Assembly: GCF_900635455.1 (NCBI RefSeq)
Contig: NZ_LR134116.1
Coordinates: 4,526,001-4,590,000, forward strand
Reading direction: 5' to 3'
Length of the DNA: 64,000 nucleotides
From: Yersinia intermedia
GTDB taxonomy: Bacteria > Pseudomonadota > Gammaproteobacteria > Enterobacterales > Enterobacteriaceae
Shown here piece after piece: positions 2,219 to 54,142 of this stretch. Made by a program: the position numbers and the translations under genes. Position 1 is the first letter of the stretch. Every line of letters begins with the position of its first letter. The notes beneath the pieces are model-generated. The model had not been told where the DNA came from. It did no database searches and was given only the letters and a program-made list of their open reading frames with translations.

Positions 2219-2362
2219 GCTGACTCAAGTCAGTGATTCGGGTGACAAATCTGCCGGGAGCAGATTTGAACGCTGCTTGCAGCGGCCTCAACGAGGCGAG
2301 GCCCAAGGATGGGCCGAGTATACGAGTGCAGCTAACAACGCTGCGGCGTCAAGGACGAAGGA
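2219..2362. repeat. 144-bp intergenic repeat, copy 2, overlapping the hmsP 3' end
   Basis: This is the second copy of the repeat at 1946-2089, in the same orientation. Its last 14 bases (2349-2362) overlap the end of hmsP and supply the last codons and the TGA stop of that gene. Beyond 2362 the two copies diverge (GATGTAG here, AACAGCC after copy 1), which marks the repeat edge. Confidence 0.85.
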
Positions 2363-4352
2363 TGTAGCGCGCCTCAAACACCTCTCGCGGTAACGGCTCT
2401 GAAAACAAAAACCCCTGCCCACAGTAGATGCCATGTTTTAGCAACCATTGACGTTGCTCATCTGTCTCGATACCTTCGGCCATTACTCGCAGCTTTAATG
2501 CTTCTGAAATAGTGGCGATAATGCGCGCCATTACGTCATCTTCTGGCAAGTGTTTCACAAAACATTTATCTAGCTTAATCATGCTGATTGGCAGGCCTTT
2601 CAGATGATTGAGATATTGAAGACTTGAATACCCCATACCAAAATCATCCAAAGCGATCGACAAACCCAGCCCCTGTAATTCGCGCAGTAGCCCGAGAGCT
2701 TCATCCAGATTCTGAATACGGGCGGTTTCGGTTATTTCCAGTAATAACTGGCGCGGATCGATTTGATACTGATTAATGATGGTTTTCAGATGCGGTAAAA
2801 ACTGATCACTCTGCACCTGCGACCCAGAAATATTCACTGCCAGCGATAGGGTAATCCCTTGCGCTTTCCAGTCAGCCAGAATACGGCATGCCTCTTCCAG
2901 TACCCAGTTACCCAGTGGCATCATCACGCCCCCCTCTTCCGCACCAGGGACAAACTCTGAAGGGGAACGATAACTACCATCCGGCTGAGGCCAGCGTAAC
3001 AACGCTTCTGCGCCGATAACCCGCTGATCTTGCATATTCCATTGGGGTTGTAAAAACAGCCGGAAGTCGTGATTTTCAATTGCCTGTAAAATGTCATTCT
3101 CCTGAGTCAGCCGCTTTTGCGTTTTCTCAGTCAAATGCGGCTCAAACACGATAATCTGGTTTCGCCCCTGATGGTGAGCAGCCATCATCGCAGTGCTGGC
3201 ATTACGCATCAGAGACTCGGCTGTCTCATCCTGGTATTGGTAATCAGTAATCCCAATACTGGCGCTGGGGCGCAATTGCATATTGCCAAAGACCAAGGGT
3301 TGGGTAATTTGCAGCATAATCTGCCGTGCCAACTGCATTGCCGGGAACGGGCGACTGATCCCTCTGGCGAGTACTGCAAACTCAGTTTTACTCAGTTGCG
3401 CCAGCAGGCTGTTTTCATCAATACACTGCTCAAGTTGCTGTGCCATCGTCAGTAAGAGCTGCCGGTGCTGCTCTTCACTCATTATGCCGGAAACTTCTTG
3501 CAATGTTTCAATGCCAATAACTAGCAGGTGGAATTTCTCAGCATGCATACCAGCCGCAATTTCCTGCTCAAGTAGAGCCATAAACAACGGGCGGTTGGGG
3601 AGTTCAGTTACTGGGAAACGGGTATTTATACGGGTCATATCCGTATAGGCTTCGGCTAATAGCTGCTGGTTACGGTTGTAATTGTGTACCAGCACGCCTA
3701 ATTCATCATCCTGATGGTGGGCAGGTAAGGTCAGTTGGTGGTTAAGTACACCTTGCTGACCGATCTTTTCCAGCTCTTTAGCCATCGCCCGTAGCGGATG
3801 GATAATCAGGCGGTTAATACACCAGGCGATAGAGACTGAAAGTACCAATGCCAGTAACAAATAGGTCGATAACATGGCCGACAACGCACTGAGAATGAAC
3901 TGATACATACGGAATGAGTCGGCACGCAACACTAAATGTGCCAGCGGCTGCGGATTTGCGGATACCCGCTCCAGAGCATACAACGGCACGGTTATCTGTA
4001 CTGGCAGGGAAAAAATGCGCTTAGCCCAGCGAGGAACAGGCCGTTCCGTGGGGAAGTTGGCATGTAATACCTGAATCTGATTCGGCAATATCACTTCAGC
4101 ACGACTGAGAATACCAATCGGTAACAAGCTATTGAGGATTTTTTTGGCTTGTGGGACATCGACACTTAATATGGCTGCTGACAACGGTTGGCGAACTGAA
4201 TATGCGATGCTCTCCAACTGCTTGGCGTAGTCATCTTTGCGCTGCTGCACAAAGTGGAACAACTGAAGGACGATAAAAATACAAATGGTTACCAGTGCTA
4301 CAACTGCCACTGCTGCCATTTGTTTAATCGTTAATGAACGCCTTACCTGCAA
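2349..4352 (-). CDS. hmsP: c-di-GMP phosphodiesterase HmsP (PdeK/YhjK-like; degenerate GGDEF plus EAL)
   Basis: This inner-membrane protein of 667 residues likely hydrolyses c-di-GMP and so limits biofilm polysaccharide production. It has a transmembrane helix at about 12-34, a periplasmic stretch to about 150, a second helix at about 152-180, a HAMP-like linker, a GGDEF-like domain at about 250-400 and an EAL domain at about 415-660. The GGDEF signature is replaced by 'SKTEF', so cyclase activity is not expected. The EAL domain keeps 'GAEALLRW', 'LLEITE', 'DDFGMGYSSL', 'IKLDK' and 'AEGIET', which argues for an active phosphodiesterase. HmsP of Y. pestis has almost the same length and map position beside bcs. 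The stop codon comes from the adjoining 144-bp repeat. Confidence 0.93.
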   Translation of the reverse strand: MQVRRSLTIKQMAAVAVVALVTICIFIVLQLFHFVQQRKDDYAKQLESIAYSVRQPLSAAILSVDVPQAKKILNSLLPIGILSRAEVILPNQIQVLHANFPTERPVPRWAKRIFSLPVQITVPLYALERVSANPQPLAHLVLRADSFRMYQFILSALSAMLSTYLLLALVLSVSIAWCINRLIIHPLRAMAKELEKIGQQGVLNHQLTLPAHHQDDELGVLVHNYNRNQQLLAEAYTDMTRINTRFPVTELPNRPLFMALLEQEIAAGMHAEKFHLLVIGIETLQEVSGIMSEEQHRQLLLTMAQQLEQCIDENSLLAQLSKTEFAVLARGISRPFPAMQLARQIMLQITQPLVFGNMQLRPSASIGITDYQYQDETAESLMRNASTAMMAAHHQGRNQIIVFEPHLTEKTQKRLTQENDILQAIENHDFRLFLQPQWNMQDQRVIGAEALLRWPQPDGSYRSPSEFVPGAEEGGVMMPLGNWVLEEACRILADWKAQGITLSLAVNISGSQVQSDQFLPHLKTIINQYQIDPRQLLLEITETARIQNLDEALGLLRELQGLGLSIALDDFGMGYSSLQYLNHLKGLPISMIKLDKCFVKHLPEDDVMARIIATISEALKLRVMAEGIETDEQRQWLLKHGIYCGQGFLFSEPLPREVFEARYILRP

Positions 4353-4693: not shown

Positions 4694-7600
4694 CTACTTG
4701 AAATCGGAGTAAGGCACCAAGGGCTGTGGTGGCATATCCAGTGAGCCTTGCCAGCCAGCCATAGAGTAACGCAGGTAGATAAGCGCATGGCTTGGGGTAT
4801 AGTCCTTCGCCTGCTGGATATCGACCCCGGCCCCCAATGTCCAATGCGAACTCAAACGGCGTTCGATCAAGGCGCGCAAGGTATAACCCACCCCATTGCT
4901 GCTACCACCATCATCGGGTTCATACCGATCTGGAATAGGTTGGATGCTGTTATTAAGCAGATTTTGCAGTGGATAACGCGCTCGTGAGCTGGTTGCAGAA
5001 TGTGAAACAGACACCGACCCACCCAACTCCCACGACCAGTTATCTGTCCGCTGCCGATAGTTTACCGGAATAGCCAGTGACAAATACTTTTGCGGGCTGT
5101 AATACCCGCCCTGGCCTAGCGTATAACCGCTGAGGTCTTTTTGATAATGCCACCACATACCGTTCAAACCGACGGTAACACGGCGGTTATCTTCATTGAT
5201 TAGCTTGTAGTAATAGCCTGTCATAAAACGCAGGCGCTGGTTATCTGCTACATTTTTGCCAGTCAGATAATGATAGCTTAAATCGCTCCACACTCCGTTG
5301 GCTTCACCACGATCGTAACTGGCTCCCAGACTGACGCCGTTAGCACGCACGCCCCCCCAAGTCACATTGGTATTCGGATCTTTGGCTCCGGCAAAAGACA
5401 GCATCGAGCTGGATATTGGTCGACGTGATGCCGTGGCAGTCCAGCCAATATGATTCCAACTATTGCTGTATGCCAGCCCACCGACCACATCAACAACGTC
5501 AAACCCCATCGGCGTAGTACCGATATCGGTTTGCCAACTGTCATTTTGCCAACCCACAGCAACACTGGTGCCCGTTGCCTGTTGATGCAGATTAGTCTGA
5601 CATGGATTTTCTGTCTGGTAGCAGGTACCGGCTTTATATCGAGTATTCTTGTCAAAGGTCCCGGCATCCATCTGCACCGTATCCGTTCTGAAGAACGCCC
5701 GACCATCAGCTAACGAGGTATCGACCTGCAACATCGTGTTGTGCGCACGGAGGTCTGAAATCCCTTCAGTGCCACTTGACCGCAGATAGTCGTGATCGAG
5801 AGTGATGCGGGTATCCTGCTGACGATAAAGGTCAGCGGCATCAGAACGAACACCCCGCTTAAGCCAGTCATCCGTGGCCTGATTGCGGGTCAGCAAGGTA
5901 TAACTGTCGTTATCAGCCGGGAGCGTAGGTGTGATACCACTGGCTACCATGGCATGTTTGAAATCATCCTGCGCCGCAGCAGGTTGCCCCTGTAATTTGG
6001 CTAACCGGCCTGAGTCACGGAATATCAAGGCATTATCCTGTGAAGGAACACCTTTGGCAGCCACCAGCTTCAAACGTTGGAAAATATCTGCTGCTTTTTG
6101 TGGCTCCCCTACGCTGCGCCACGCATTGGCTATCCGGCGCTGAGTGTTCAAGCTGGCCCCTTCATCGGAAAGTGGCTTATGTTGTAAATTTTGATGAGCA
6201 TCACTGAGGCGGCCTTCAGCAATATAAGCCTCAATCTCACCCAGTATGGCATCAGGGTTTTGTGGCTCGCGCGCCCGAATTCGCTGATAACCCGCCAGTG
6301 CTTCCTGATAGTCGCCACGCTCCAGCGCCCAATCGGCAAGCGTCAGGTCAATTCCGGTGTTGGCTGGCTGCTGACGTAATACGGTTACCGCGCCCGCTTC
6401 ATCACCACTTGCCCGCAGTTGGCGGGCCGCGGCCAGTACCTGTTCCAATTTCAAGCGCTGGTCTAAAGCGCGGATATTATCAGTCCATTGCAGGGTTGGC
6501 AGCGTTGCCAAATGCGCCAATGCCTGACTATCACGCCCCGTGCTGGAGAAATACAGTGCATAGGCATATACCTGTTCGGGATCTCCCGGCTTACGGCTTG
6601 CTAGCCGGTGGAACTGGGCATCAGCCTCCGCCAAATGATCCTCTTGCGCTAACGCCTGTGCCAGCCGATAAGTTATCCAGACATCGTCCGGGGCCATCTT
6701 TAGCGCCTGCCGATATTTTTCTGCCGCCTGACGCCATTGTTGCTGCGCCGCCAGATTTTCGGCTTGTTGTTTCAGCATATCTATTTGCAGGCTATCTAAT
6801 GTGTCACGCATTTTGGCTTGTTGACTGCGTGGCAAACTGTTCAGGTAACTCAATGCTTTTTGCGGCGATTCACGCTGGTAGATATTACTTAGCCCACGCA
6901 CTGCACTGTCGTTTGATGGGTCCAGACGTAGCGCTTGCTGATAATACTGTTCGGCTGTTTTATCATCATGGCGGGCCACGGCAACATCAGCTAAGCCAAT
7001 CAATGCATAGCTGTCGCTGCCGTCAATGTGCCGTGCCTGCTGGTATTTCTGTTGCGCCACGCCGGTATTACCCGCTTTCAGCGCTTTATCTCCCTCGTCA
7101 TTTAGCAGCCAGTAGCGATTGGTTTTTATCAGGCTGATCCACTTGTCGCTTTTCAGACCATCTTTATCTGATTTTTGCGCCTGCTCAAACAAGCGCAGCG
7201 CTTGTGCGCGGTCACCGCTACGGGCATATGCCAGGCCCAACGCGCCGAGTATTTCGGGGTCATTAGGTGAGGCAGCCAGTGCCTGTTTTAGCGCAGGGAT
7301 CGCTGCCACACCACTGCCGCTATCTACTTTTGCCAATCCGTTTAAACGCGCTTGATAAGTCGGTGAAGCCAGCATGGCCTGCTGGTTTGCCAATGCCTGA
7401 CGGGCAAGATTAGCTTGAGGGCCAGACGAGAAGACGTCGAGGAAATGAGTCAGTGCCGCGACACTTTGTGGGCTAACAGTCATTGCCTTGATTGTTTCCA
7501 TCCACAAATCTGCGGCTTGTGAAGCTCCCACAGGGTCCGAGGCCACTTTCTCCAACATGGCATAGCCTTGCGTGGCGTTTTGCTGGCTGAAATACAGGCG

Positions 7601-8176
7601 GGCCAAGGCCATTCGCAGCGCGACATTGCCGGGGTATTGTTGATCAAGTGCGGCTAACTTCTGGGTAGCGAGGGCTTCCTGCCCCGGAACACGTGCGACC
7701 AACCGCCAGTATTCCACAGCAAGATCCAGCGTCGGCGGTTTTCCTTGCAACAATTGATCATATTGCGCTTTGGCCTCAGCAATCCGCCCGGCAGTCGCCA
7801 ACAGACGCGCTTGTTGCAACTGTTGCCGCACCTCCGGTTTAGTCAGCGCCAACATCAGTTTCGCTCGCTGATAAGTATCTGAATCAGGTGCCAGTTGTTG
7901 CAGTTTATCCAACTGTTGTTGTGCTTCGGCCAAATTACCCTGTCTCAGGGCTTGGCGCATACTTGCCGCCACTACATCTGGGTTATTTGGGTCCATCATA
8001 TTCAGGCGATATAATGATTGCTTAACCAATTCGTCTCTATTGGTCGCTTCCCCTAACCGTACCTGTTCCAGTAAAAACTGGGTTGGTGAGACCGGTTCCG
8101 CGCCCAGAGCCATACCGGTAAAGGCTTGAGGCAACAGCGCCAGGCTTAAGAGCCAGTATCTTTTAATGTTGCGCAT
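4694..8176 (-). CDS. bcsC: Cellulose synthase outer-membrane channel BcsC
   Basis: This protein of 1160 residues exports the cellulose chain across the periplasm and outer membrane. After a signal peptide ending 'GMALGA' (about residue 25) comes a long alpha-solenoid of TPR repeats to about residue 800. Typical units are 'NDPEILGALGLAYARSGD' and 'SYALIGLADVAVARHDD'. The C-terminal 300 or so residues form the BcsC beta-barrel and end with an aromatic-rich strand. Its length matches E. coli BcsC (about 1157). The start at 8176 lies inside bcsZ (31-base overlap), which implies translational coupling. It is intact, unlike bcsA. Confidence 0.96.
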   Translation of the reverse strand: MRNIKRYWLLSLALLPQAFTGMALGAEPVSPTQFLLEQVRLGEATNRDELVKQSLYRLNMMDPNNPDVVAASMRQALRQGNLAEAQQQLDKLQQLAPDSDTYQRAKLMLALTKPEVRQQLQQARLLATAGRIAEAKAQYDQLLQGKPPTLDLAVEYWRLVARVPGQEALATQKLAALDQQYPGNVALRMALARLYFSQQNATQGYAMLEKVASDPVGASQAADLWMETIKAMTVSPQSVAALTHFLDVFSSGPQANLARQALANQQAMLASPTYQARLNGLAKVDSGSGVAAIPALKQALAASPNDPEILGALGLAYARSGDRAQALRLFEQAQKSDKDGLKSDKWISLIKTNRYWLLNDEGDKALKAGNTGVAQQKYQQARHIDGSDSYALIGLADVAVARHDDKTAEQYYQQALRLDPSNDSAVRGLSNIYQRESPQKALSYLNSLPRSQQAKMRDTLDSLQIDMLKQQAENLAAQQQWRQAAEKYRQALKMAPDDVWITYRLAQALAQEDHLAEADAQFHRLASRKPGDPEQVYAYALYFSSTGRDSQALAHLATLPTLQWTDNIRALDQRLKLEQVLAAARQLRASGDEAGAVTVLRQQPANTGIDLTLADWALERGDYQEALAGYQRIRAREPQNPDAILGEIEAYIAEGRLSDAHQNLQHKPLSDEGASLNTQRRIANAWRSVGEPQKAADIFQRLKLVAAKGVPSQDNALIFRDSGRLAKLQGQPAAAQDDFKHAMVASGITPTLPADNDSYTLLTRNQATDDWLKRGVRSDAADLYRQQDTRITLDHDYLRSSGTEGISDLRAHNTMLQVDTSLADGRAFFRTDTVQMDAGTFDKNTRYKAGTCYQTENPCQTNLHQQATGTSVAVGWQNDSWQTDIGTTPMGFDVVDVVGGLAYSNSWNHIGWTATASRRPISSSMLSFAGAKDPNTNVTWGGVRANGVSLGASYDRGEANGVWSDLSYHYLTGKNVADNQRLRFMTGYYYKLINEDNRRVTVGLNGMWWHYQKDLSGYTLGQGGYYSPQKYLSLAIPVNYRQRTDNWSWELGGSVSVSHSATSSRARYPLQNLLNNSIQPIPDRYEPDDGGSSNGVGYTLRALIERRLSSHWTLGAGVDIQQAKDYTPSHALIYLRYSMAGWQGSLDMPPQPLVPYSDFK

Positions 8177-9285
8177 TGACTATTCCATGAGGGCTGAAGC
8201 TCACCCTGACGATTAAAACGATAGCGCTGCTGTACCCATCCCTGACCAAACAGCGTCAGCACAGTACTGTAATAAGCATTCGCGGACGGTGGAGTATCTT
8301 GCACACGCTGTTGTTGCCCATTAAAGGTTTGCTGATTATAGGGTTGAGGACTGCTGGCTAAAAATGGCAGTAATGCTGCCGAGAACCCTTCCGGCCCCTT
8401 GCCACTGGTTTTGCCGTTACTGGTATCCACATTTTCCGGTGGCACTCCTTGCTGTTGAGTTACCGCCACCATCGGCTGGAATCGCTGGATTAACGCCGCC
8501 TTTTGTGGGCTGTTATTGGACAACATGCCAACCCACAAATAGACACGTATCGCGTCGTAGCTACCGATATCGGGCCGTGTTTCATCAGATTGCCAACCTT
8601 TCCCTTCTTGCCAAACGACCCAATCAGGGGAGAAACCATGGGGTGCCGTTTCAAGCAATAAGCGCTGATTGACTTTAGCCATCGCTTTCCATGGCCCCGC
8701 CAAAGAGGCAAAGCGTGCCAACAGTTGTGGCGGCAGATAACTCGGGTTGAGCCGCCAACGGTCATTATCGTTAAAGCCAATTTTCCCCGGTAATAACATC
8801 TCGCCAAGGCCCGGAATATTCACCACTTCTTCTTGGGCAATACGTTGTAGCAACAAGGTGCCCATCGTCTGGTAACGGCGACTATCCCATAGCCGCCCCG
8901 CTTCCAATAAGCTGTATGCAATCCATAAGTCCGAATCAGAGGCCGAGTTTGGATCCAGAACGTCCCAATTATTATCCTTACGTTGCCCCCATAACCATAC
9001 GGGCAAACGTGCAGTCAAATCCCCCGCAGCCAGATTGTTTTCCGTCCAGGACAATAATTGGTCAAAAGCGTCCCGATCATTGGCAACCAGAGCAAAAAAC
9101 AACCCATAACTCTGCCCTTCAGACGTGGTTACTTTCCTCGCGCTACTGGGATCAATAACTCGCCCAGCATCGCTGACATAGTCATGTTTGAACTGCTGCC
9201 ATGCCGGCCAATCACATGTTGCCGCGCTACCAAAACTGACCAGCAGCAGCAGGGCACAGAGCCGCCGTTTAAACATCACGACCAT
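8146..9285 (-). CDS. bcsZ: Periplasmic endo-1,4-beta-glucanase BcsZ (GH8)
   Basis: This 379-residue GH8 cellulase trims nascent cellulose in the periplasm. It has a signal peptide to about residue 22 ('GSAATCDWPAW'). The likely catalytic acid is in 'TTSEGQSYGLFFAL' (Glu near residue 56), and the conserved 'SASDSDLWIAYSLLEAGRLW' carries the second acidic pair. 'LLPGKIGF' and 'NPSYLPP' are also shared with E. coli BcsZ. An alternative ATG three codons in (9276) is closer to the E. coli start. The gene sits between bcsB (5-base gap) and bcsC (overlap) in the bcs operon. Confidence 0.95.
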   Translation of the reverse strand: MVVMFKRRLCALLLLVSFGSAATCDWPAWQQFKHDYVSDAGRVIDPSSARKVTTSEGQSYGLFFALVANDRDAFDQLLSWTENNLAAGDLTARLPVWLWGQRKDNNWDVLDPNSASDSDLWIAYSLLEAGRLWDSRRYQTMGTLLLQRIAQEEVVNIPGLGEMLLPGKIGFNDNDRWRLNPSYLPPQLLARFASLAGPWKAMAKVNQRLLLETAPHGFSPDWVVWQEGKGWQSDETRPDIGSYDAIRVYLWVGMLSNNSPQKAALIQRFQPMVAVTQQQGVPPENVDTSNGKTSGKGPEGFSAALLPFLASSPQPYNQQTFNGQQQRVQDTPPSANAYYSTVLTLFGQGWVQQRYRFNRQGELQPSWNSQCATLKDTGS

Positions 9286-9290: not shown

Positions 9291-11576
9291 TTAATCTCTT
9301 TCATCGGGTGATAACCGGCGGCGGCTGATCAGACGTAATACGCGCCAGACCATCATTGCAGCCATAACCACAACCAATACTGCCACGCCAGCCAGCAGCA
9401 CCGGATGGGTAGATAAGGCATACCAGATACGTTCCCACCACGGTAGGTGGCCGACCTCATAGGTCTCGCCAACCCGTAGACTGTTGACACCTGACTCACG
9501 AATAACCGCGACCGAGCCAAAGATAGCCTCGCGCTTGCCGGTATCGAGCAGTGCATTGTTCAACAAGCTATAGCCACGCGAGCCATCCGCCAATAACGCC
9601 ACAATACTGCGCTGAGAGAAGTGAGGTGATTGCATGCCGATGATAGCGGACATTGCGCCTTCAGAGCTTATCGTCGCTTGGCTGTCTGCCATCCAGTCTG
9701 ATTGTGGTGCCATTATGGTCGGTAAGTCCGTTTGCCGATTTGGCATTTTCAGCCAACTCAGCGTCTGTTCCACCAGCACGTTAATCTGCCGATCATTGCG
9801 CAGTTCTGGCGGAATTGTGCCAATAATCAACACATCGGCATCTTTTTCCTTCACCTGTGACCAATTATCAGTGATGTTAATACCGACGGCTGGGTAGCCC
9901 ACCTGCGCCCCGATATTACCCACTGCATTGAGCAGGGTTGTTATCTGTGCCGGAGCCGGTTTTGGTGGTACCAGAACCAGCGTTTCAGAGAGATCAGCCA
10001 TGCGGCTGAAGGGGAATCCAGCATTGGCAAATGCCCGCAGATCAGGCATTTCCATAAAGTGACGGTAGCCGGAAAAATCGATAGTAGAGTTACCGTCAAT
10101 CACCGCGTGATTCGGCGCGGTAGAATAGGTTTCACATCGCCCTTCGACACCGCTTGCCAACAAGGTGCTGTAATCAAAATCAAAGCGCAGTTGGTTGATA
10201 GCACCCAGTTTCAAGGCCGGAATGCTTAGCCTTTTGGTGGCATCCTGTAAGCCTTGTAACAGTGGCATGCGCAGGATCTTACTGTCTTCTGGCATATTCG
10301 GTGACAGTGGGTAATCCTGCACAAACTGATTATTCAAGCTGATACTTAAGCGGGAACCATCCATCAGGCGTGTTGAGGTGTAGCGATATTTCAAACGCAT
10401 ATCGATACCGGCACTGCGAATCAAGAACAAATCCGGTGGCAGATTCATCGCTAATGAAATCGGCGGTGGCAGTAATCCCGAGGTTTGCAGTTGATCAGGA
10501 TATTGCTGTAACTCAGCAAACGTCATCGGGCGATCGGTACGTACCCAATTTGGCGCGTCATAAGGCAGGCGAGGCGCTAATTGCTCAACCTTATCCACGG
10601 TGACGTTCTGGCCACGGAACAGAATATTGCCTTGCGCGATCCCCTGTGCGGCAGTAATCAGATCATTATCATCGCGCCCTAGAATCAGTAGCAATTTCAC
10701 ATACGGGTTATTCGGATGGCTGATGATTTCCACCGTTGGCGCTTTCACCGGCGGGTAATCTTTCAGGAAATCAGGCCGTTGTGAATTGGTCGCGAACACC
10801 ACGCCATGCTGAGTAGGCAGTTGGTTGTACAATACCGGGAAGCTCTGCCCACGCCATTGCGCCTTAGCACCAAACCATGATGCCAGAATAGCGGCAGCCC
10901 GCTGTTGTGACACATCAGGTGCAGCAGCAAATATCACGGGTAGAGTCAGCGGGCGATTATCCCTGCCATCAAAAAATGGCTCAGGGAAGTGGGACAAATC
11001 ATTTTTAACCAGCAGCGATTGATAGCGCAAATCCAGCGAGCTGGATTTACTGACATCCAGCCACAATGTATTGCTCGCCGGGTTCTCACAGATATTTTGA
11101 TAGTGGCCGACAAAAACCAACCGCAACCGGTTGAAATCAGTGATATAACGTGGATCAATCGGTAATTGCAGATGGGTGGGTTGACCAAGCTGATCTTTGG
11201 TGATCGCCGTGACGCCCATCAGTTCGTCATTCAGGAAGATCTTCACCTGCGACTCCACCGGGATCAGTGAAGGTGACGGCGTAAACTCAAGATTCAACGT
11301 CGCATTAGTCACTACCTCATCACTGCGCACACCGAACTCAAGTTGGCCTTCAGGGTTAGTACCACGCAAGGAAAATGTCCCCGGCGGCGGAGCGATTTTG
11401 GCGAACGGGTACTTCACGTCACGCAGCGGCGCATCACCCAATGCTGCGGGAACCAGCACCGCGTCACCGGTCATGACCGCCGATTGAGTTGGTGGCGCAG
11501 CCGGAGTTTCAGCATGGGTGAATGGCGTCAGTCCCAAAGCCAATGCGGTAAACCAGGTTATTTTTCTCGTCATCAT
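9291..11576 (-). CDS. bcsB: Cellulose synthase periplasmic subunit BcsB
   Basis: BcsB (761 residues) binds the emerging glucan in the periplasm and anchors to BcsA through one C-terminal helix. A signal peptide is visible ('FTALALGLTPFTHA'), followed by two carbohydrate-binding plus flavodoxin-like modules. Near the end is a transmembrane helix ('VLLAGVAVLVVVMAAMMVW') followed by basic residues. Family segments such as 'LPYDAPNWV' and 'RWLPTDRP'-type loops ('PNWVRTDRPMTFAEL') are present. It lies seven bases after the PilZ fragment of bcsA. It appears full length. Confidence 0.95.
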   Translation of the reverse strand: MMTRKITWFTALALGLTPFTHAETPAAPPTQSAVMTGDAVLVPAALGDAPLRDVKYPFAKIAPPPGTFSLRGTNPEGQLEFGVRSDEVVTNATLNLEFTPSPSLIPVESQVKIFLNDELMGVTAITKDQLGQPTHLQLPIDPRYITDFNRLRLVFVGHYQNICENPASNTLWLDVSKSSSLDLRYQSLLVKNDLSHFPEPFFDGRDNRPLTLPVIFAAAPDVSQQRAAAILASWFGAKAQWRGQSFPVLYNQLPTQHGVVFATNSQRPDFLKDYPPVKAPTVEIISHPNNPYVKLLLILGRDDNDLITAAQGIAQGNILFRGQNVTVDKVEQLAPRLPYDAPNWVRTDRPMTFAELQQYPDQLQTSGLLPPPISLAMNLPPDLFLIRSAGIDMRLKYRYTSTRLMDGSRLSISLNNQFVQDYPLSPNMPEDSKILRMPLLQGLQDATKRLSIPALKLGAINQLRFDFDYSTLLASGVEGRCETYSTAPNHAVIDGNSTIDFSGYRHFMEMPDLRAFANAGFPFSRMADLSETLVLVPPKPAPAQITTLLNAVGNIGAQVGYPAVGINITDNWSQVKEKDADVLIIGTIPPELRNDRQINVLVEQTLSWLKMPNRQTDLPTIMAPQSDWMADSQATISSEGAMSAIIGMQSPHFSQRSIVALLADGSRGYSLLNNALLDTGKREAIFGSVAVIRESGVNSLRVGETYEVGHLPWWERIWYALSTHPVLLAGVAVLVVVMAAMMVWRVLRLISRRRLSPDERD

Positions 11577-11583: not shown

Positions 11584-12090
11584 TCAATGTTGAGCCACTG
11601 TCTGGCTTTGGCTGCTCGGAACCTGATTTTTACCTACGCCATGGGGTACAAATGACGCTATCCAGGCAATCAGGGAAGTAAATCCTACCAATACATTTCG
11701 TATTACCGGCGGTGCATAGCTGGCCATACGGACATATCCTCTAAAGCCCAGCGCCAACACATCACGCAGACTTTCAATTGGCTTATCTTCAGGGAAACCA
11801 TCCTGCCACAGCGCCCAAGTATCGGCGCGGGCAAATGTGCACTGTATAAAATCAATATGTTGGGCCACACTCAGTTGATGCATTCGCATCCCGGCTTTAG
11901 TACCGAAGGCACGGGTCACCTCACAGGGGAAGGTGTACTCTTGCGCCCCACGTTTAAGCAGTAAGTGTACCGCCTCACCCTCTTGCAGTAATCCAACGTC
12001 ACGCATCTCAATCCCCACGCCCCCATCGGAATAGTCGCGCAGTGTACAGGAGAACAAGTGACCATCAGCGCGTGCGACTGCGGCTGGCAT
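11584..12090 (-). pseudogene. bcsA: Detached PilZ domain of BcsA (downstream of premature stop)
   Basis: This frame continues the bcsA frame exactly: only seven codons separate the TAA at 12112-12114 from this ATG. It encodes the PilZ domain and the C-terminal tail that normally complete an approximately 870-residue BcsA. The PilZ motif DxSxxG is seen as 'DYSDGG' near residue 19, and the tail ends with an amphipathic helix like that of E. coli BcsA. The second Arg of RxxxR is in the seven lost codons (SHRVEIA). Translation could restart at 12090, but I see only a weak purine stretch upstream. With the stop read through, the whole reading frame 11584-14211 would give 875 residues. Confidence 0.9.
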
Positions 12091-12111
12091 GGCTATTTCG
12101 ACCCGATGTGA

Positions 12112-14211
12112 TTAGCGCACTTGTTTGGCTTCAACCGCCACCGCAACGGCACCGCCTAAAATCGTCATGTTATAAATCACCCACACCAGGCTGATAACCA
12201 CCGTCATAATTTCATTCGACGGGCCATGACCTAAACGCCACAACCCCGCAATCAAACCCGCAAGGTTAAGCAAAACCAGCGTCATATACGGGCGGGTGAT
12301 CACCCAATCCACATGCTGTTCTTCAACCAGCCCCCCTTTCGCCGTGACGTTAAACGTCCCTTTGTGCGGATTGAGGAGTGCTATGGTGGTCGGCCGGGCG
12401 ATATACCACGCCAGCACCGTTTCATAGATTTCACTCCAGAAGGAATGGCGGTATTTCCCTTGCAGACGTGAGTTGGTCAGACTGGCATGGATCATATGCG
12501 GCAACACATAGAGTGCGATCGCCAATGCTGGAGCAAAAATAATGTAAGCATGCAGTAGCAGGAAAGCCAGCGGAGCGGTTAAGAAGATCAACCTTGGTAC
12601 GCCAGATAAGAAGTGCAACATGGCATTGACATAGCATAGACGCTGTACCCATCTCAGCCCTTTGCCAAACAACGGGTTATCTAACCGGAAGATTTGTACC
12701 ATACCCCGCGCCCAACGAATGCGTTGACCAATATGGGCCGACAAACTTTCGGTCGCCAGCCCAGCGGCCTGCGGAATACGGATATAGGCGGAGGAGTAGC
12801 CTTTACGGTGCATACGCAGCGAGGTATGGGCATCTTCAGTCACTGTTTCTACCGCAATACCGCCAACAGCATCTAACGCACTGCGGCGCAGCACCGCACA
12901 AGAACCACAGAAGAAGGTGGCATCCCACATATCGTTACCGTCTTGCACCAAACCATAAAACAGCGTGCCTTCATTCGGTGTCTGACGAAAACGCCCCAGA
13001 TTTCGCTCAAAGGGGTCGGGAGAGAAAAAGTGATGTGGCGTCTGGAGTATGCCTAGCCTGGTATCTTTAAAGAACCAGCCCAACGTCAATTGCAGGAAAG
13101 AGCGGGTCGGTACGTGGTCGCAGTCAAAAATGGCGACAAACTCCCCGTGAGCCTGTTTCAACGCATGGTTTATGTTCCCGGCTTTGGCATGCTCGTGAGT
13201 CGGTCGGGCAATGTAATGCACCCCAACCTCAGCGGCGAACGCTTTAAACGCAGGCCGGTTACCATCATCCAAAATATAGATATTGATTTTATCTTTCGGC
13301 CAATCAATACCAAGAGCGGCATAAATGGTTGGTTTGACCACGCCGAGGTCTTCGTTGTAGGTCGGCACCATCAAATCAATGGTCGGCCAACTATTGATAT
13401 CATCTGGCATTGCCACCGGCTGGCGGTTGAGCGGCCAAATAGTCTGGAAGTAACCTAAGACAAGCACCACCCAGGCGTAAGTCTCAGCAAACAGCAACAA
13501 TAATCCGCATACCAGACTAACCGGGTCATCCCAGTTCAGCGTTTCGGTATAGCGCCACCATAGATAGCGGCAGGAGACGGTCAACGACAGCACGATAAGC
13601 ATTAAAGTCGGTAAGCGCCCCGGCACGCGCCGCATCACCATCGCCAACGCCCAAAGCAGCAGCACAAAAACGAACTGCGCCATCATGCCAAACGGCTGAG
13701 AAATACACAGCAGCGCTAATATGCCGGTGAAGATACCCAAAATAATAAACATAACCCGGCGGGTGCGCTTTGAAGACGGGGTTAATCGGGTGATCAGAGA
13801 TTGCTCCAGCCGCTGGAGTTCAAAGCGTTCAGGTATGTTCCCCAGCCAACGGATATAACCTTGTCTTTTATGTTTTACCCATTTCTTGCCGGCGGTGGCA
13901 GGTTGGTGCCTCTTCTCATCGCGCGATTCAGGATAGGTCAGTAGCAGCCAAAGCCCTTGCAAGAGATACCGTAGGCCATCGCCAAGCCGTGGGCGAGTAG
14001 GTGAAATCTGTGGGAACCAGTAAGTGCGGTTTTGTATCACACGCTGCCAACTGGGTGACTCAAAACGTAGAAAAATCCAGCACAACGGCAGAGCTAATGT
14101 GGTCAGAAAAGCAGTGAGCACGGTGCAGCCTTGCTGCATATACAGATGATAGCGTCGACGCATCCCTTGATAAACGGGGGTCAGAAATAATACCCGTATC
14201 AGGCTATTCAT
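12112..14211 (-). CDS. bcsA: Cellulose synthase catalytic subunit BcsA, truncated by an in-frame TAA
   Basis: BcsA polymerises UDP-glucose into cellulose and extrudes it across the inner membrane. This 699-residue product keeps the N-terminal helices and the GT2 domain: DDG at about 315-317, DCDH at about 363-366, TED at about 458-460 and QRIRW at about 496-500. It also keeps the later helices and the gating loop 'FNVTAKGG'. It ends '...VAVEAKQVR' and stops at TAA (12112-12114), exactly where E. coli BcsA has Gln in the c-di-GMP motif RQSHR. The codons after the stop read S-H-R in frame. A single C-to-T change (CAA to TAA) explains the split. Loss or alteration of c-di-GMP control of cellulose synthesis is expected. 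A sequencing error cannot be excluded. Confidence 0.93.
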   Translation of the reverse strand: MNSLIRVLFLTPVYQGMRRRYHLYMQQGCTVLTAFLTTLALPLCWIFLRFESPSWQRVIQNRTYWFPQISPTRPRLGDGLRYLLQGLWLLLTYPESRDEKRHQPATAGKKWVKHKRQGYIRWLGNIPERFELQRLEQSLITRLTPSSKRTRRVMFIILGIFTGILALLCISQPFGMMAQFVFVLLLWALAMVMRRVPGRLPTLMLIVLSLTVSCRYLWWRYTETLNWDDPVSLVCGLLLLFAETYAWVVLVLGYFQTIWPLNRQPVAMPDDINSWPTIDLMVPTYNEDLGVVKPTIYAALGIDWPKDKINIYILDDGNRPAFKAFAAEVGVHYIARPTHEHAKAGNINHALKQAHGEFVAIFDCDHVPTRSFLQLTLGWFFKDTRLGILQTPHHFFSPDPFERNLGRFRQTPNEGTLFYGLVQDGNDMWDATFFCGSCAVLRRSALDAVGGIAVETVTEDAHTSLRMHRKGYSSAYIRIPQAAGLATESLSAHIGQRIRWARGMVQIFRLDNPLFGKGLRWVQRLCYVNAMLHFLSGVPRLIFLTAPLAFLLLHAYIIFAPALAIALYVLPHMIHASLTNSRLQGKYRHSFWSEIYETVLAWYIARPTTIALLNPHKGTFNVTAKGGLVEEQHVDWVITRPYMTLVLLNLAGLIAGLWRLGHGPSNEIMTVVISLVWVIYNMTILGGAVAVAVEAKQVR

Positions 14212-14944
14212 GGCCTTTTTTCGCCATATTAATCAAACACCAATTTGCCAGTGTGATGACCTCTTCGGCAGCCAGACTTTGCGCACTGTATTCACCCAAT
14301 GGCTGTTTGGCCGCCAACGCTTCAGCAACCGCTTCATCGCGATGAATAAATATGGGTAATAAGTTATCCAGGCTTTGTAACCAAAGCTGATGTAAATCCT
14401 GTTGTAGATGGCTGCTGGCAGAAAATTGGTTCAGCAGGAAATGGCAGTTAGCAGGCAGATTTTGCTGATGCAAGCGAATATGACAACTGGCATCGGCATG
14501 GATCAATACCAGCACCTTATCAGCCAGCGCTAACATCTGACGCGTGAAAGTGCTGTCCCCCGCAGGGATATCCAATAGAATCCAGCAACTGGGCGTGCTG
14601 GCCTGCAACACAGCCAGATTTTCCCGCCACAGGTTGGGATGCTGTTGTAAAGAGGTGTGCAATTGCTCAGTTTCAGTGAGGGTTAACTGGCCAAAAGGCA
14701 GAAAGTCCAACCGTTCGGAATAGCGCATCGCCCCTTGCTGCCAACCTTCGCCCGCGATTTCAGCTTTGGCCCAACCACGAGGTTGGTCAAACGGCATATT
14801 GAAATGCAACCGCAGTAAGTTATCCGGTGAAAAATCGATCACCAGAACTGATTCTTTCAGTTGCTGCAATGCCCAAGCAAGAGCGGCGGCTACCGATGTA
14901 GTACCAACCCCACCTCTTATCCCTTGTAATGCCAGTACCGGCAT
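14204..14944 (-). CDS. bcsQ: Cellulose biosynthesis protein BcsQ (MinD/ParA-like ATPase)
   Basis: BcsQ (246 residues) is a SIMIBI-class NTPase. It joins BcsR and BcsE at the cytoplasmic side of the cellulose secretion complex and helps place it at the cell pole. The P-loop is 'QGIRGGVGTTS' near residues 7-17, with Thr in place of the usual Lys-Thr as in E. coli BcsQ. 'VLVIDFSPDNLLRLHFN' follows, and the C-terminal 'HRDEAVAEALAAKQPLGEY' is strongly conserved. It overlaps the bcsA start by eight bases and follows bcsR by three bases. There is no early stop of the kind known in E. coli K-12 bcsQ. Confidence 0.94.
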   Translation of the reverse strand: MPVLALQGIRGGVGTTSVAAALAWALQQLKESVLVIDFSPDNLLRLHFNMPFDQPRGWAKAEIAGEGWQQGAMRYSERLDFLPFGQLTLTETEQLHTSLQQHPNLWRENLAVLQASTPSCWILLDIPAGDSTFTRQMLALADKVLVLIHADASCHIRLHQQNLPANCHFLLNQFSASSHLQQDLHQLWLQSLDNLLPIFIHRDEAVAEALAAKQPLGEYSAQSLAAEEVITLANWCLINMAKKGHE

Positions 14945-14947: not shown

Positions 14948-15139
14948 CTATTCTCTCCCTGTAGATTGGGCCAGTTCAGCCAGCAATGGCCAGCGAGCCA
15001 TCATCTGAGTTAATCGTTCCTGACGAACGATATCAATATAACTTAACGTTGGTAATGAGAAAGCCTGAGCTAATGCTAGTAGATCATCCTGAGATTCGAG
15101 TAATGTTTTGGCGTGAAATCGATTTATTATGGCTTTCAT
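14948..15139 (-). CDS. bcsR: Cellulose biosynthesis small protein BcsR
   Basis: This 63-residue protein matches BcsR/YhjR in length, position and sequence, including 'DDLLALAQAFSLPTLSYIDI' and 'RWPLLAEL'. BcsR partners with BcsQ and regulates assembly of the Bcs complex. It is the first gene of the minus-strand bcsRQABZC operon. The divergent bcsEFG operon starts about 200 bases away, so 15140-15335 should hold both promoters. Confidence 0.92.
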   Translation of the reverse strand: MKAIINRFHAKTLLESQDDLLALAQAFSLPTLSYIDIVRQERLTQMMARWPLLAELAQSTGRE

Positions 15140-15335
15140 TTTATCCGCCTTCAGAAAATAGGCTATGGTAATTAATTATACCGATAATTAGAGTATACTT
15201 TCTCCCAACAGGATGAGTCTTAGATTATTATCACGGTAAAGACATTGGTTAATGATTATTGCAATGTTACAATTGTTCAATGAATTTATCCAGTAATTGG
15301 CCCAATCGTATTTTAACCAAGCAGATAAAAAATCT

Positions 15336-16892
15336 ATGCCACGATCTTTCACATTAGGTGTTCGAAAAATCTGGGATGAATTAGCCGTGATGCAGGCGCC
15401 TGGGTTTTATTGGGTCAATATTGAACGTCAAATTGATGCTAATTTATTCTGTCAGCAACTTATTCGTAACCAGCCTGAAAATACGCGGGCCGCGTTGATT
15501 TGTTCCGGGCTAAAACCGGAGAAGTTACTGGCAAGTCTTGTGGGTTATGGCCCTAACAAATTGCCACTCTTTACGCTCCCTGCGCAAAGAAAAGCATTGC
15601 TCCATTTAACTCACGATTTAATGCGTTCATTACGGCCGCAACAGCGACTGTTCATTCTGTTGGCGCCGGCCAGTTTATGGCAAACATTCACTGGCGAAGA
15701 GATGCAGCAGTGGCTACAACATATTCAACAATGGTTGGGCGAACAGAACTGTACGTTAATCGTGATTTGCCACAGTGCTGGCATTAATAAAGTTAAGAAT
15801 CAACTAGTTAGCCAGCATCGTTATTTGCAAGGGTTAGCTTGCCTGCAATGGCAGCAAGATAATGCGCAGTATGTTGTCTCTTGGTGGAGCACTGAAAAAG
15901 GGGTTACTGCCAATCAGTTAGTTCTGTTGAAAGCCGATGAACAAGGCTGGAGCATGGCGGATGAAGTTCAACAGGCACTACCGCCTTCACGTAATGATGA
16001 GCATCTGTACTTAGCGGAAACCACCATTCTGGAGGGAGCACCACCACTTTCTGCCAACTGGCAATTGTTTGATAGCAACGCTGTATTGGCTCAACGGGCA
16101 ATCAATGCCCATACCGCCACATTGATTTTTGCTCTTGATCAAAGTGAACAAATAGACGACTTAGCACATCAGATCCATAACATTCGCCGCCAACGCGGTG
16201 ATGCTGTCAAAATTGTAGTGCGCGAAATGAACGCCAGCCTGCGTTACAGCGATGAACGTTTGTTGCTGGCCTGCGGCGCGAATCTGATTGTGCCTCACAT
16301 CGCACCGCTGTCACGCTTTCTTACTATGCTGGAAGGTATTCAGGGCCAACGTTTCTCTCGGCATGTTCCTCAAGATATCAATACATTATTAGAGGCTTTA
16401 CGCCCGTTCCAGCTTAAAGGTTATTTACCTCCTGCCGAGTTCTGCCACTCTGTTTTGCAACTGATGAACAACACGCTGCTGCCCGAAAATGGCAAAGGTG
16501 TCATGGTTGCTCTGCGGGCAGTCCCTGGGTTACAGGCAAAGCAAGCCCTAACACTGTGCCATCTACGCCGCTATGGTGATGTGGTAACAGTAGCTGATAA
16601 CCACTTAGTATTATTTCTTTCCACCTGCCGTATCAATGACTTAGACACTGCTCTGAATTATATATTCCGTTTGCCGGCTGCTGAAGTTTTCAGTAATCAA
16701 CGGGTGTGGTATCAGGATCAAGCCATTATCGCTGAGATTAACCGGATGAATACCCCCAATGCCTGGCAAATGACCGGTGACAAAAAATCCTATACGCAAG
16801 AAGTTGATGCCCCTGAGCAAGCCGAAGTTAGCCGACGAATACCTGTGCCTCTGGCGCTGGATGTCGGGCAGAACAAGGATAGAACACAATGA
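15336..16892 (+). CDS. bcsE: c-di-GMP-binding cellulose protein BcsE (GIL domain)
   Basis: BcsE is a cytoplasmic c-di-GMP receptor that raises cellulose output through BcsF, BcsR and BcsQ. I chose the ATG at 15336, giving 518 residues, because its 'MPRSFTLGVRKIWDEL' lines up with the E. coli BcsE start. An in-frame TTG at 15297 would add 13 residues but has no family support. Conserved pieces include 'VLEGAPPLSANWQLF', 'RYSDERLLLACGANL', 'MVALRAVPGLQ' and 'CRINDLDTALNYIF'. The GIL-domain motif RxGD is present as 'RRYGDVV'. It overlaps bcsF by four bases (ATGA). Confidence 0.94.
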   Translation: MPRSFTLGVRKIWDELAVMQAPGFYWVNIERQIDANLFCQQLIRNQPENTRAALICSGLKPEKLLASLVGYGPNKLPLFTLPAQRKALLHLTHDLMRSLRPQQRLFILLAPASLWQTFTGEEMQQWLQHIQQWLGEQNCTLIVICHSAGINKVKNQLVSQHRYLQGLACLQWQQDNAQYVVSWWSTEKGVTANQLVLLKADEQGWSMADEVQQALPPSRNDEHLYLAETTILEGAPPLSANWQLFDSNAVLAQRAINAHTATLIFALDQSEQIDDLAHQIHNIRRQRGDAVKIVVREMNASLRYSDERLLLACGANLIVPHIAPLSRFLTMLEGIQGQRFSRHVPQDINTLLEALRPFQLKGYLPPAEFCHSVLQLMNNTLLPENGKGVMVALRAVPGLQAKQALTLCHLRRYGDVVTVADNHLVLFLSTCRINDLDTALNYIFRLPAAEVFSNQRVWYQDQAIIAEINRMNTPNAWQMTGDKKSYTQEVDAPEQAEVSRRIPVPLALDVGQNKDRTQ

Positions 16893-17083
16893 ATTTCAAC
16901 GATATTTGGCAACTCCTGCTGTTCAGTGCGGTTATCTTTTTCCCATTAGGGTATGTGGCGCACCGTTGGTTTCCACGCTGGTGGGAAAAAAGACAACATC
17001 TGTTCTTATCGGCACGATATTTAAAATCAGAAGGGGTTTGGTTGCGTAATGGCTCCTCTTCACAGACGAAGAAACAACCATGA
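16889..17083 (+). CDS. bcsF: Cellulose biosynthesis membrane protein BcsF
   Basis: BcsF (64 residues) is a single-pass inner-membrane protein that recruits BcsE to the membrane. The N-terminal helix 'IWQLLLFSAVIFFPLGYVA' is followed by a basic, aromatic cytoplasmic tail ('HRWFPRWWEKR'). It overlaps bcsE and bcsG by four bases each, so the three genes are translationally coupled. Confidence 0.92.
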   Translation: MNFNDIWQLLLFSAVIFFPLGYVAHRWFPRWWEKRQHLFLSARYLKSEGVWLRNGSSSQTKKQP

Positions 17084-18750
17084 ATGCAAAGAATAAACTG
17101 CAAGAATCGCCAAACCCGTGGCGTTATTGGCGTGGCCTTGGCGCATGGAACTACTATTTCCTGCTAAAATTTGCCCTGCTATGGTTTGGGTACCTGAACT
17201 TCCATCCGCTGGCTAACCTGATATTTATTGCTTTCCTACTCTTCCCGATCCCAGCATACAGAGTCCACCGTTGGCGTCACTGGATTGCGATACCGATAGG
17301 TATTGGCGTGTTGTATCACGACACCTGGCTGCCGGGGCTTAACAGTATTCTAAGCCAAGGATCGCAGGTTACGAGCTTTAGTTTTAGCTATCTGGTTGAA
17401 TTATTTGGCCGTTTTATTAACTGGGCCATGATAGGAACTGCCTTTGTTATCTTGGTGGGCTACCTGTTTATTTCACAATGGATTCGGGTGACTGTTTTTG
17501 TCGTTGCAGCCATTATTTGGTTGAATATTGCCAGCATCGCTGGCCCCGCATTTTCGCTAACACCGGCGGCTGAAACGCCGGTAACCGCTGCCGCGATAAC
17601 ATCAGCCGCGATAACACCGGGGGGCGAGCCGCCAGCGCCCAGTAGCAGTCAGGTAGTAGCCAGTGCCCCGCCAACCGATGCCAATCTAACGGCTTATCTG
17701 AATGCATTTTATGAGCAGGAGAAGACCCGCCGTACGGCTTTCCCGGCCTCCCTGCCAGCAGATGCACAACCTTTTGATTTATTAATTATTAATATCTGCT
17801 CACTGTCTTGGTCAGATATTGAAGCCATCCAACAGGATAAACATCCGCTGTGGAATAAGTTTGATATTCTGTTCAAGAATTTCAACTCTGCCACCGCCTA
17901 CAGTGGCCCGGCATCGATACGGTTACTGCGCGCCAGTTGTGGTCAATCATCGCACAAAGATCTCTATCAGCCGCAAGAGCAACAGTGTTATCTATTTGAT
18001 AATTTGGCGAAACTTGGCTTCACATCTCAGTTGATGCTGGATCACTCTGGGGTATTTGGTAATTATCTGCAAAACATTCAAGACGACGGCAATATGCGCG
18101 CGCCGCTCATGTCACAAAAAGGTATCAGTAATCAATTGGCATCCTTCGATGGTGAGCCAATTTACAATGATTTGGAACTGCTCAACCGCTGGCTGGAACA
18201 GCAGCAGAAAGGCGGAGATACCCGTAGCGCAACCTTCATGAATATCATACCGTTACATGATGGTAACCGCTTCGCCGGTACCAATAAAACGGCTGATTAC
18301 CGCGCTCGCGCCCAAACGCTATTTGACCAATTGAACACGTTTTTAGAGGAATTGGAAAAATCAGGTCGCAAAGTCATGGTGGTAATCGTACCGGAGCACG
18401 GTGCTGCGCTGGTAGGCGATAAAATGCAGATGTCCGGCCTGAGAGATATCCCCAGCCCAAGCATCACGCATATCCCTGTTGGGATTAAGCTAATAGGTAT
18501 CAAAGCGCCACAGCCCGCCAGCCCGGTGACTATCAACACGCCAAGCAGTTATCTGGCTCTCTCTGAATTAGTATCACGCATGGTCGATGGCAAAGTATTT
18601 ACTGCGCCAACTATCGATTGGCAGACCCTGACACAAGGATTGCCACAAACAGCCGTAATATCTGAAAACGATAATGCTATTGTGATTCAATATCAGGGAA
18701 AACCTTATATTCGATTAAATGGCGGTGACTGGGTACCTTACCCACAATAA
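17080..18750 (+). CDS. bcsG: Cellulose phosphoethanolamine transferase BcsG
   Basis: BcsG (556 residues) adds phosphoethanolamine from phospholipid to cellulose in the periplasm. It has several N-terminal transmembrane helices (to about residue 165), a Pro/Ala-rich linker, and then an alkaline-phosphatase-like domain. The nucleophile Ser is in 'TAYSGPASIRLLRASCG'. 'LIINICSLSWSDIEA' holds the zinc-site Cys, and 'VVIVPEHGAALVGD' the metal-binding Glu and His. Length and motifs match E. coli BcsG (559). It is the last gene of bcsEFG and is followed by a strong terminator at 18781. Its presence implies that modified cellulose was made before bcsA was interrupted. Confidence 0.95.
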   Translation: MNAKNKLQESPNPWRYWRGLGAWNYYFLLKFALLWFGYLNFHPLANLIFIAFLLFPIPAYRVHRWRHWIAIPIGIGVLYHDTWLPGLNSILSQGSQVTSFSFSYLVELFGRFINWAMIGTAFVILVGYLFISQWIRVTVFVVAAIIWLNIASIAGPAFSLTPAAETPVTAAAITSAAITPGGEPPAPSSSQVVASAPPTDANLTAYLNAFYEQEKTRRTAFPASLPADAQPFDLLIINICSLSWSDIEAIQQDKHPLWNKFDILFKNFNSATAYSGPASIRLLRASCGQSSHKDLYQPQEQQCYLFDNLAKLGFTSQLMLDHSGVFGNYLQNIQDDGNMRAPLMSQKGISNQLASFDGEPIYNDLELLNRWLEQQQKGGDTRSATFMNIIPLHDGNRFAGTNKTADYRARAQTLFDQLNTFLEELEKSGRKVMVVIVPEHGAALVGDKMQMSGLRDIPSPSITHIPVGIKLIGIKAPQPASPVTINTPSSYLALSELVSRMVDGKVFTAPTIDWQTLTQGLPQTAVISENDNAIVIQYQGKPYIRLNGGDWVPYPQ

Positions 18751-43714: not shown

Positions 43715-43738
43715 CGTTAAATATGGAAGGGCTTGCTC

Positions 43739-53640: not shown

Positions 53641-54142
53641 CTGACATACCTTTCTGGTTTGGATGATTCACACAGTTGTGATTCATCAGGTGATGACATG
53701 GCCTACATGGTTGCGAGCCAATGATTTGTTTTGATTTCTAATGACTATATATCTGCGCAATATGATTATCAATGATTGGCGTGATTTTTTTGTGACAACT
53801 GCAACAGTTTATCTCGATATAGAAATACAGCATCATTCAACACATTGAATTAATTGTTGTTTAACATTTTTATTTGACTTATGCGGATTTTTTGTATGGT
53901 TGCCATCATCCATTTAACCTAAATTTTACATTCGGATAATGCAGGGAATAGATTATCTCGACCAAGATCTTCATCACAATAAATCAAATAATGAGCATGT
54001 ATGATTATTTCAGATCTTGTAGTGAGTGGAGACAGTTGAATCTGCTCGCGGGGAGTCAGGTAAAGCAATGCCCATATGAACGGTTATATGTACACACCAA
54101 TCCAATAGCAATGAGTTGTCCTCATCTGGACGGAGCATAAAT
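53641..54142. promoter_or_regulatory. Divergent ulaG / ulaAB regulatory region
   Basis: About 500 bases with no gene between the two ula arms. It holds TATGATTAT at 53761-53769 and 54000-54008, a CRP-like half-site TGTGA near 53792, and a TTGTGAT near 53679. The E. coli ula promoters are repressed by UlaR and activated by CRP, so this is the expected control region. The exact promoters were not resolved. Confidence 0.55.

What the first reader, a model, noticed from the sequence alone, without database searches (positions are those of the whole stretch)
12082..12125. In-frame ochre codon in bcsA falls inside the RxxxR c-di-GMP motif
The reading frame of BcsA continues unbroken through 11584-14211 except for one TAA at 12112-12114. 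The codons around it read Q-V-R-stop-S-H-R. In E. coli BcsA the same place reads R-Q-S-H-R, the first half of the PilZ c-di-GMP-binding motif. One C-to-T change (CAA to TAA) splits the catalytic membrane part from its PilZ sensor. In Rhodobacter BcsA, Arg residues of this motif take part in the switch that gates the active site, so the truncated enzyme could be dead or wrongly regulated. All other bcs genes look intact, which suggests a recent change. It parallels the early-stop inactivation of bcsQ known in E. coli K-12.
Basis: partly seen in the sequence, partly recalled or inferred. Interest (0 to 1): 0.8.

Follow-up and report, generated by a model that had tools for sequence, protein, structure and literature searches.

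The report
Broken cellulose synthase gene in Yersinia
The gene for the cellulose-making enzyme of this Yersinia strain carries a stop signal that cuts off its c-di-GMP sensor; it looks like a recent, ordinary gene-breaking mutation, and close relatives carry the same gene broken at other places.

Summary
bcsA (minus strand, 11584-14211) is open except for one TAA at 12112-12114, inside the RxxxR motif. The piece before it (699 aa) keeps the catalytic motifs and the gating-loop motif and ends on the first Arg. The piece after it keeps the second Arg and DxSxxG. At this place 97 of 97 related locus rows compared (88 distinct genomes) have a sense codon and an intact RxxxR. The other bcs genes are open. 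dN/dS against the nearest species is alike in both pieces (0.041, 0.043), so the stop looks recent. Another assembly, possibly of the same strain, ends BcsA at the same residue.

Best reading: a recent loss-of-function allele, one of several. Five other BcsA sequences 98-100% identical are cut elsewhere: three frameshifts, one deletion fusing BcsA to BcsB, one clean end that may be a contig edge. Y. frederiksenii ATCC 33641 has a stop at residue 85. Falling in the motif is then probably chance.

Recurrent loss of cellulose genes is known in E. coli, Shigella and Salmonella: a new member of a known kind. A c-di-GMP-blind synthase is not excluded but unlikely, as PilZ also docks BcsE-Q-R.

The parts
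12112..14211 (-). bcsA first piece, 699 aa: membrane and GT2 part, ending on the first Arg of RxxxR
   Evidence: ORF, 6 families; motifs DDG 315, DCD 363, TED 458, QRIRW 496, FNVTAK 620
12112..12114 (-). in-frame TAA, codon 700 of bcsA
12103..12117 (-). place of the RxxxR c-di-GMP motif, interrupted by the stop
   Evidence: intact in 97 of 97 related locus rows
12337..12354 (-). gating-loop motif FNVTAK (FxVTxK), kept in the first piece
11584..12090 (-). ORF of the cut-off C-terminal piece (168 aa from the ATG at 12088-12090), PilZ domain; this start lies after both Arg of RxxxR; no AGGAG-like site seen by eye in the 22 bases before it
12019..12036 (-). DYSDGG, the DxSxxG half of the PilZ motif
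9291..11576 (-). bcsB, open
8146..9285 (-). bcsZ, open
4694..8176 (-). bcsC, open
14204..14944 (-). bcsQ, open
14948..15139 (-). bcsR, open
15297..16892 (+). bcsE, open
16889..17083 (+). bcsF, open
17080..18750 (+). bcsG, open
2349..4352 (-). hmsP, c-di-GMP phosphodiesterase beside the operon, open

Best explanation
A recent nonsense mutation has broken bcsA in this strain. Translation ends after residue 699, on the first Arg of RxxxR. What is made, if stable, is a membrane-bound GT2 synthase without PilZ. It cannot bind c-di-GMP through its own sensor to move the gating loop, and it lacks the surface on which the BcsE-Q-R complex docks, so cellulose synthesis is most likely lost. Restart at the ATG that begins 21 bases after the stop would give a PilZ fragment without either Arg of RxxxR, so it should not restore sensing. 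The allele is one of several bcsA breaks in near-identical alleles and in other Yersinia, the same kind of recurrent cellulose loss as reported for E. coli, Shigella and Salmonella. Shown: the stop, its absence at this codon in the relatives compared, open neighbours, unrelaxed dN/dS, other broken alleles in the protein collection. Inferred: absence of a working enzyme, loss of cellulose, independence of the breaks in living strains, and selection rather than drift.
For: Stop confirmed. Sense codon and RxxxR in 97 of 97 related locus rows. dN/dS against the nearest species: first piece 0.041, second 0.043. Other bcs genes open against that species. A 675-aa protein 100% identical over its length ends at the same residue and sits on a 123,751-base contig, i.e. 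another assembly than this 4,757,282-base one (P0058). Five further proteins 98-100% identical are cut elsewhere: P0065, P0067 and P0074 carry tails matching the shifted frame of this gene at the point of the break (3 of 3, 8 of 9, 47 of 49 residues; the first is too short to weigh much); P0145 is a deletion fusing BcsA 1-496 to BcsB 497-761; P0060 ends cleanly at 657. P0067, P0074 and P0145 are identical in protein up to their breaks yet broken in three ways. In the genus 2 of 18 species genomes with this type of bcsA have an internal stop (this one and Y. frederiksenii, residue 85). The genome search shows no second bcsA and one other PilZ protein. PilZ carries the c-di-GMP switch and docks BcsE-Q-R (passages of PMC8461298). 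Recurrent loss is known (PMC10881479, passages and section 7).
Against: No phenotype or protein data. Activity of BcsA without its C-terminal domain is called unknown in PMC5567048 (discussion passage). The number of intact alleles in this species is unknown: full-length copies are probably hidden in the 400-member cluster of P0059, so the frequency of breaks cannot be given. All six cut alleles are single sequences on single contigs; P0067, P0074 and P0145 come from one source (lgn) and could be assembly variants; P0060 could be a contig edge; P0058 could be the same strain. The matched alaS search lists no short allele among 25 rows with at least 97% identity, but 4 of its 120 rows are shorter than 800 aa, all at 95%. 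Across 50 genomes of the order, 4 bcsA hits hold a stop (one at residue 24, perhaps before the true start) against 0 of 49 for alaS and no internal one of 50 for bcsB; I ran no significance test, the numbers are small, and alaS, being essential, controls for sequencing error only.
Confidence: 0.78

Rival explanations
1. The truncated enzyme is active without c-di-GMP: removing PilZ frees the gating loop, giving unregulated cellulose.
For: The first piece keeps DDG, DxD, TED, QxxRW and the gating-loop motif. In Rhodobacter BcsA, breaking the Arg-Glu salt bridge gives a constitutively active enzyme, and PilZ is described as acting as a repressor without c-di-GMP (passages of PMC5567048).
Against: The Arg of that salt bridge is kept here as residue 699. 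PilZ is also the docking site of BcsE-Q-R (passages of PMC8461298). The other near-identical alleles are cut earlier, two before the gating-loop motif (496, 544) and three just after it (627, 639, 657), which points to loss as the common theme.
Confidence: 0.08
2. Working split enzyme: ribosomes restart at 12090 and the PilZ fragment acts in trans.
For: An ATG begins 21 bases after the stop, in frame, with 168 open codons; dN/dS of the second piece is low.
Against: The restarted piece lacks both Arg of RxxxR; no AGGAG-like site in the 22 bases before the ATG (printed, judged by eye); no special RNA fold (z 0.95). Among 57 hits of the second piece the closest are 87% (P0001, 140 aa) and 95% over 59% of it (P0019, 99 aa), so no near-identical stand-alone copy was found. 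Low dN/dS is expected if the stop is recent.
Confidence: 0.04
3. Sequencing or assembly error.
For: Only one genome was read here; reads were not available.
Against: A single-contig genome, 100% complete by the tool's estimate; no shift of frame is involved; P0058 from another assembly ends at the same residue, though it might be the same strain.
Confidence: 0.06
4. The stop is read through, giving enough full-length BcsA.
For: The gene is otherwise intact.
Against: UAA followed by U is a strong terminator (recalled). The two tRNAs in the window are tRNA-Pro and tRNA-Sec; the latter reads UGA. A whole-genome search for a UAA suppressor tRNA was not done.
Confidence: 0.03

Closest known systems
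Recurrent bcs loss-of-function alleles in E. coli ST95 (also Shigella, Salmonella), PMC10881479
   Same: Stops and frameshifts in bcsA and other bcs genes; that paper counts 27 independent mutations in 339 of 613 ST95 strains (section 7).
   Different: Another genus; here neither frequency, phenotype nor association with a source is known.
bcsQ early stop of E. coli K-12 (PMC5944007, passages)
   Same: One change makes a stop in an otherwise intact bcs operon; K-12 makes no cellulose.
   Different: Another gene, bcsQ, near its start; here the stop is late in bcsA and leaves the catalytic part.
BcsA of E. coli and Rhodobacter (PDB 9fmv, 7lby, 4p00)
   Same: Catalytic part of the first piece aligns with both; the second piece aligns with E. 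coli BcsA (no Rhodobacter hit for it at the default cut-off).
   Different: One polypeptide there; here cut inside RxxxR.
BgsA of Sinorhizobium meliloti, a synthase with a C-terminal tail but no PilZ (PMC5567048, passages)
   Same: GT2 glucan synthase without PilZ.
   Different: Its own tail binds c-di-GMP; this truncated BcsA has no tail beyond residue 699.

Membership tests
BcsA, UDP-forming cellulose synthase (NF008558) | GT2 core with D, DxD, TED, QxxRW | tested here: met
   (first piece; 1313.5 bits, cut-off 992)
BcsA, UDP-forming cellulose synthase (NF008558) | gating loop FxVTxK | tested here: met
   residue 620
BcsA, UDP-forming cellulose synthase (NF008558) | PilZ with RxxxR and DxSxxG in the same chain | tested here: not met
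   stop inside RxxxR
BcsA, UDP-forming cellulose synthase (NF008558) | makes cellulose under c-di-GMP control | not testable with these tools
   needs the bench
Recurrent bcs loss-of-function alleles | several distinct breaks in close relatives | tested here: met
   with doubts on P0060 and on single-source singletons
Recurrent bcs loss-of-function alleles | more breaks than in a control gene | tested here: inconclusive
   small numbers, unknown denominators, no significance test
Recurrent bcs loss-of-function alleles | no cellulose made | not testable with these tools
   needs the bench
Two-protein synthase with a separate PilZ partner (Alg8-Alg44 kind) | separate PilZ gene with its own start signal and complete motif | tested here: not met
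   no start-site motif seen, both Arg of RxxxR outside the restarted piece

The most novel reading that the evidence does not exclude
The allele is a natural c-di-GMP-blind cellulose synthase: cut exactly after the first Arg of RxxxR, it keeps the whole catalytic part and makes cellulose without the second messenger.
Probability: 0.07. Interest if true: 0.7.

Novelty: new member of a known kind. Interest (0 to 1): 0.3.

Why it matters
As a single mutation it is ordinary. Together with the other broken alleles it suggests that Yersinia, like E. coli, Shigella and Salmonella, repeatedly loses cellulose synthesis through bcsA, which can be counted in public genomes. The place of the cut also makes it a natural version of an experiment that PMC5567048 calls for (discussion passage): what BcsA does without its C-terminal domain.

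Tried and rejected
Special targeting of the c-di-GMP motif: rejected as the main cause, because other breaks lie elsewhere and the motif holds 2 of 236 stop-prone codons, 1 of 72 by transition.

A conserved split gene: rejected; 0 of 97 related locus rows has a stop there.

Rescue by a second synthase: the own genome shows no second bcsA; one distant GT2 protein (37% over residues 205-397) belongs to another locus.

Rows dropped: the 50 genomes used for counts are those with a match from residue 63 or earlier to 841 or later (my cut, out of 75 matching genomes). Left out by it: G311, whose two bcsA pieces are out of frame, and G084 and G111, partial or distant matches flagged with a stop (not looked into). 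The cut thus makes the bcsA count a lower bound. bcsB stops flagged in 2 of 50 genomes lie at residue 760 of 761, most likely the natural ends.

RNA fold around the stop and promoter scan gave nothing. Species naming failed: the nearest alaS rows are Yersinia sp. StPb PI strains and Y. aldovae, 98-99%, and the own alaS is not listed at 100%. Why P0060 and P0065, which the window does not encode letter for letter, show no source is unexplained.

Full report
What is there. The window is bases 4526001-4590000 of a single-contig genome of 4,757,282 bases. Named relatives place it in Yersinia; I could not name the species, whose nearest held species (G008) is 91% identical in bcsA DNA. The bcs region is complete and of the E. 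coli type: bcsR-Q-A-B-Z-C on the minus strand, bcsE-F-G on the plus strand, with hmsP beside bcsC. The bcsA frame 11584-14211 holds one internal stop, TAA at 12112-12114, codon 700.

Where the stop falls. The first piece (699 aa) has DDG 315, DCD 363, TED 458, QRIRW 496 and the gating-loop motif FNVTAK 620, and ends ...KQVR; the second begins SHRVE and holds DYSDGG. Against solved E. coli BcsA (9fmv_A) the first piece ends at residue 696 and the second starts at 698, so the stop is the second position of RxxxR. In 97 of 97 related locus rows tested the aligned codon is a sense codon and RxxxR is intact. These are the 80 named loci plus 17 same-genus loci; nine Yersinia species are in both (matched by coordinates), so 88 are distinct.

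Is it recent? Against G008, dN/dS is 0.041 for the first piece and 0.043 for the second; the other bcs genes lie between 0.091 and 0.185, and none has a stop over the aligned length, which is all or nearly all of each. The cut-off piece shows no loosened constraint, so the stop looks young compared with that divergence. This does not show that the second piece still works.

Is it real? P0058, 675 aa, 100% identical over its length (start at residue 25), ends at the same residue on a contig of 123,751 bases. That is another assembly, though possibly of the same strain.

Other broken alleles. The first piece has 7,041 hits among 7,996 scored candidates, of which 120 are listed. In that list six proteins are 98-100% identical and all six are cut short; the best listed full-length protein is 96% (P0059). 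The cuts differ: P0058 at 699; P0060 clean end at 657 (stop or contig edge, undecided); P0065 frameshift after 639 (a tail of only three residues); P0067 frameshift after 627; P0074 frameshift after 544; P0145 deletion joining BcsA 496 to BcsB 497. P0067, P0074 and P0145 are identical to each other in protein up to their breaks (0 differences over 544 and 496 shared residues), so three different breaks sit on one protein background. Caution: full-length alleles of the species may be members of the 400-member cluster of P0059, whose members I cannot see, so no frequency follows; all six entries are single sequences on single contigs, three of them from one source, and could include assembly variants.

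Control for artefacts. The same search with the first 699 residues of alanine-tRNA ligase from this genome lists 120 rows; 4 are shorter than 800 aa, all at 95% identity and three of them on contigs under 6 kb, and none of the 25 rows at 97% or more is that short. In whole genomes, 394 of the order were searched with an intact relative's BcsA and 75 matched; 50 of these match over nearly the full length (my cut). Of the 50, 4 hold a stop: this genome (residue 700), Y. frederiksenii (85), G253 (259) and G143 (24, perhaps before the real start). Outside the cut, G311 has bcsA in two pieces out of frame, and G084 and G111 were flagged with a stop but not looked into. For alaS it is 0 of 49 (50 searched, one without match). 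For bcsB, 2 of 50 were flagged, both two residues from the end of the query, most likely the natural ends. For bcsC within the genus, 1 of 18 matching genomes (25 searched) is split: G016, whose two pieces lie in different frames by their coordinates. These numbers point the same way but are small, and I ran no significance test.

Genus picture. Of 25 Yersinia species genomes, 18 have this type of bcsA, 4 have only a second type about 50% identical, and 3 show neither. Two of the 18 have an internal stop in bcsA. Among the 80 named loci, bcsA is broken in Y. frederiksenii ATCC 33641 (stop) and Serratia rubidaea NCTC12971 (frameshift); the other 78 have an open frame of 865 codons or more.

How it most likely works. 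PilZ holds the c-di-GMP switch that moves the gating loop, and also the docking surface for BcsE-Q-R (passages of PMC8461298; of PMC5567048). Losing it should leave an enzyme that cannot be switched on normally and is not assembled with its partners: no cellulose. The counter-argument is that PilZ acts as a repressor in Rhodobacter BcsA and that changing the first Arg gives constitutive activity; but that Arg is kept here. The activity of BcsA without its C-terminal domain is named as an open point in PMC5567048 (discussion passage), and my search for such a study listed one paper, on YcgR homologues. A restart product would begin at the ATG at 12090, after both Arg, so it should not sense c-di-GMP.

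Comparison with what is known. [quoted passage not shown] E. coli K-12 has the bcsQ stop (passages of PMC5944007). Y. enterocolitica BcsA, YE4074, is listed as a PilZ protein (passages of PMC2266911). My paper searches on Yersinia with bcsA, cellulose synthase or bcs operon listed 30 of 87, 8 of 8 and 12 of 65 papers; among these listings (titles and starts of abstracts) I saw none on bcsA breaks in Yersinia. PMC10333796 (passages) gave background on PilZ motifs only.

Verdict. Observation confirmed; interpretation partly supported. It is an ordinary recent null allele of a known kind, made somewhat more interesting by its company of other broken alleles.

Noticed in passing
G000:C1:1885000-1900000 (L180): Separate polysaccharide-like locus: carbohydrate phosphorylase, response regulator with SpoIIE phosphatase, nucleotidyltransferase, HATPase_c_2 protein, a 614-aa GT2 protein distantly like BcsA and without a PilZ match, and three DUF3131 proteins in a row. 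Matches of similar strength to the same stretch of BcsA occur in G001, G008, G009, G016 and G021.
   Followed up: partly
L026 / L178 (G010, Y. frederiksenii ATCC 33641): bcsA has an in-frame stop at residue 85; N-terminally shortened BcsA proteins named Y. frederiksenii (P0075, P0104) and, by eye, a frameshifted PilZ fragment (P0052) also exist.
   Followed up: partly
L179 (G016): bcsC split in two pieces in different frames near residue 556.
   Followed up: partly
P0145: Deletion fusing BcsA residues 1-496 to BcsB 497-761 in a near-identical allele.
   Followed up: partly
P0019: A 99-aa C-terminal BcsA fragment on 16 contigs that matches, by eye, the end of the 733-aa N-terminally shortened P0087 and P0088: another Yersinia group whose bcsA seems broken.
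   Followed up: no
G005, G008, G013, G014, G015: A second BcsA type, about 50% identical; in four of the five it is the only one.
   Followed up: no
window 43733-46294 and 54116-55873: Fimbrial usher and ascorbate PTS genes with no match in the 60-kb syntenic stretch of G008.
   Followed up: no
window 2237-2332 (+): Borderline Rfam match to Aggregatibacter sRNA 22 (40.3 bits, cut-off 39.8) beside hmsP.
   Followed up: no
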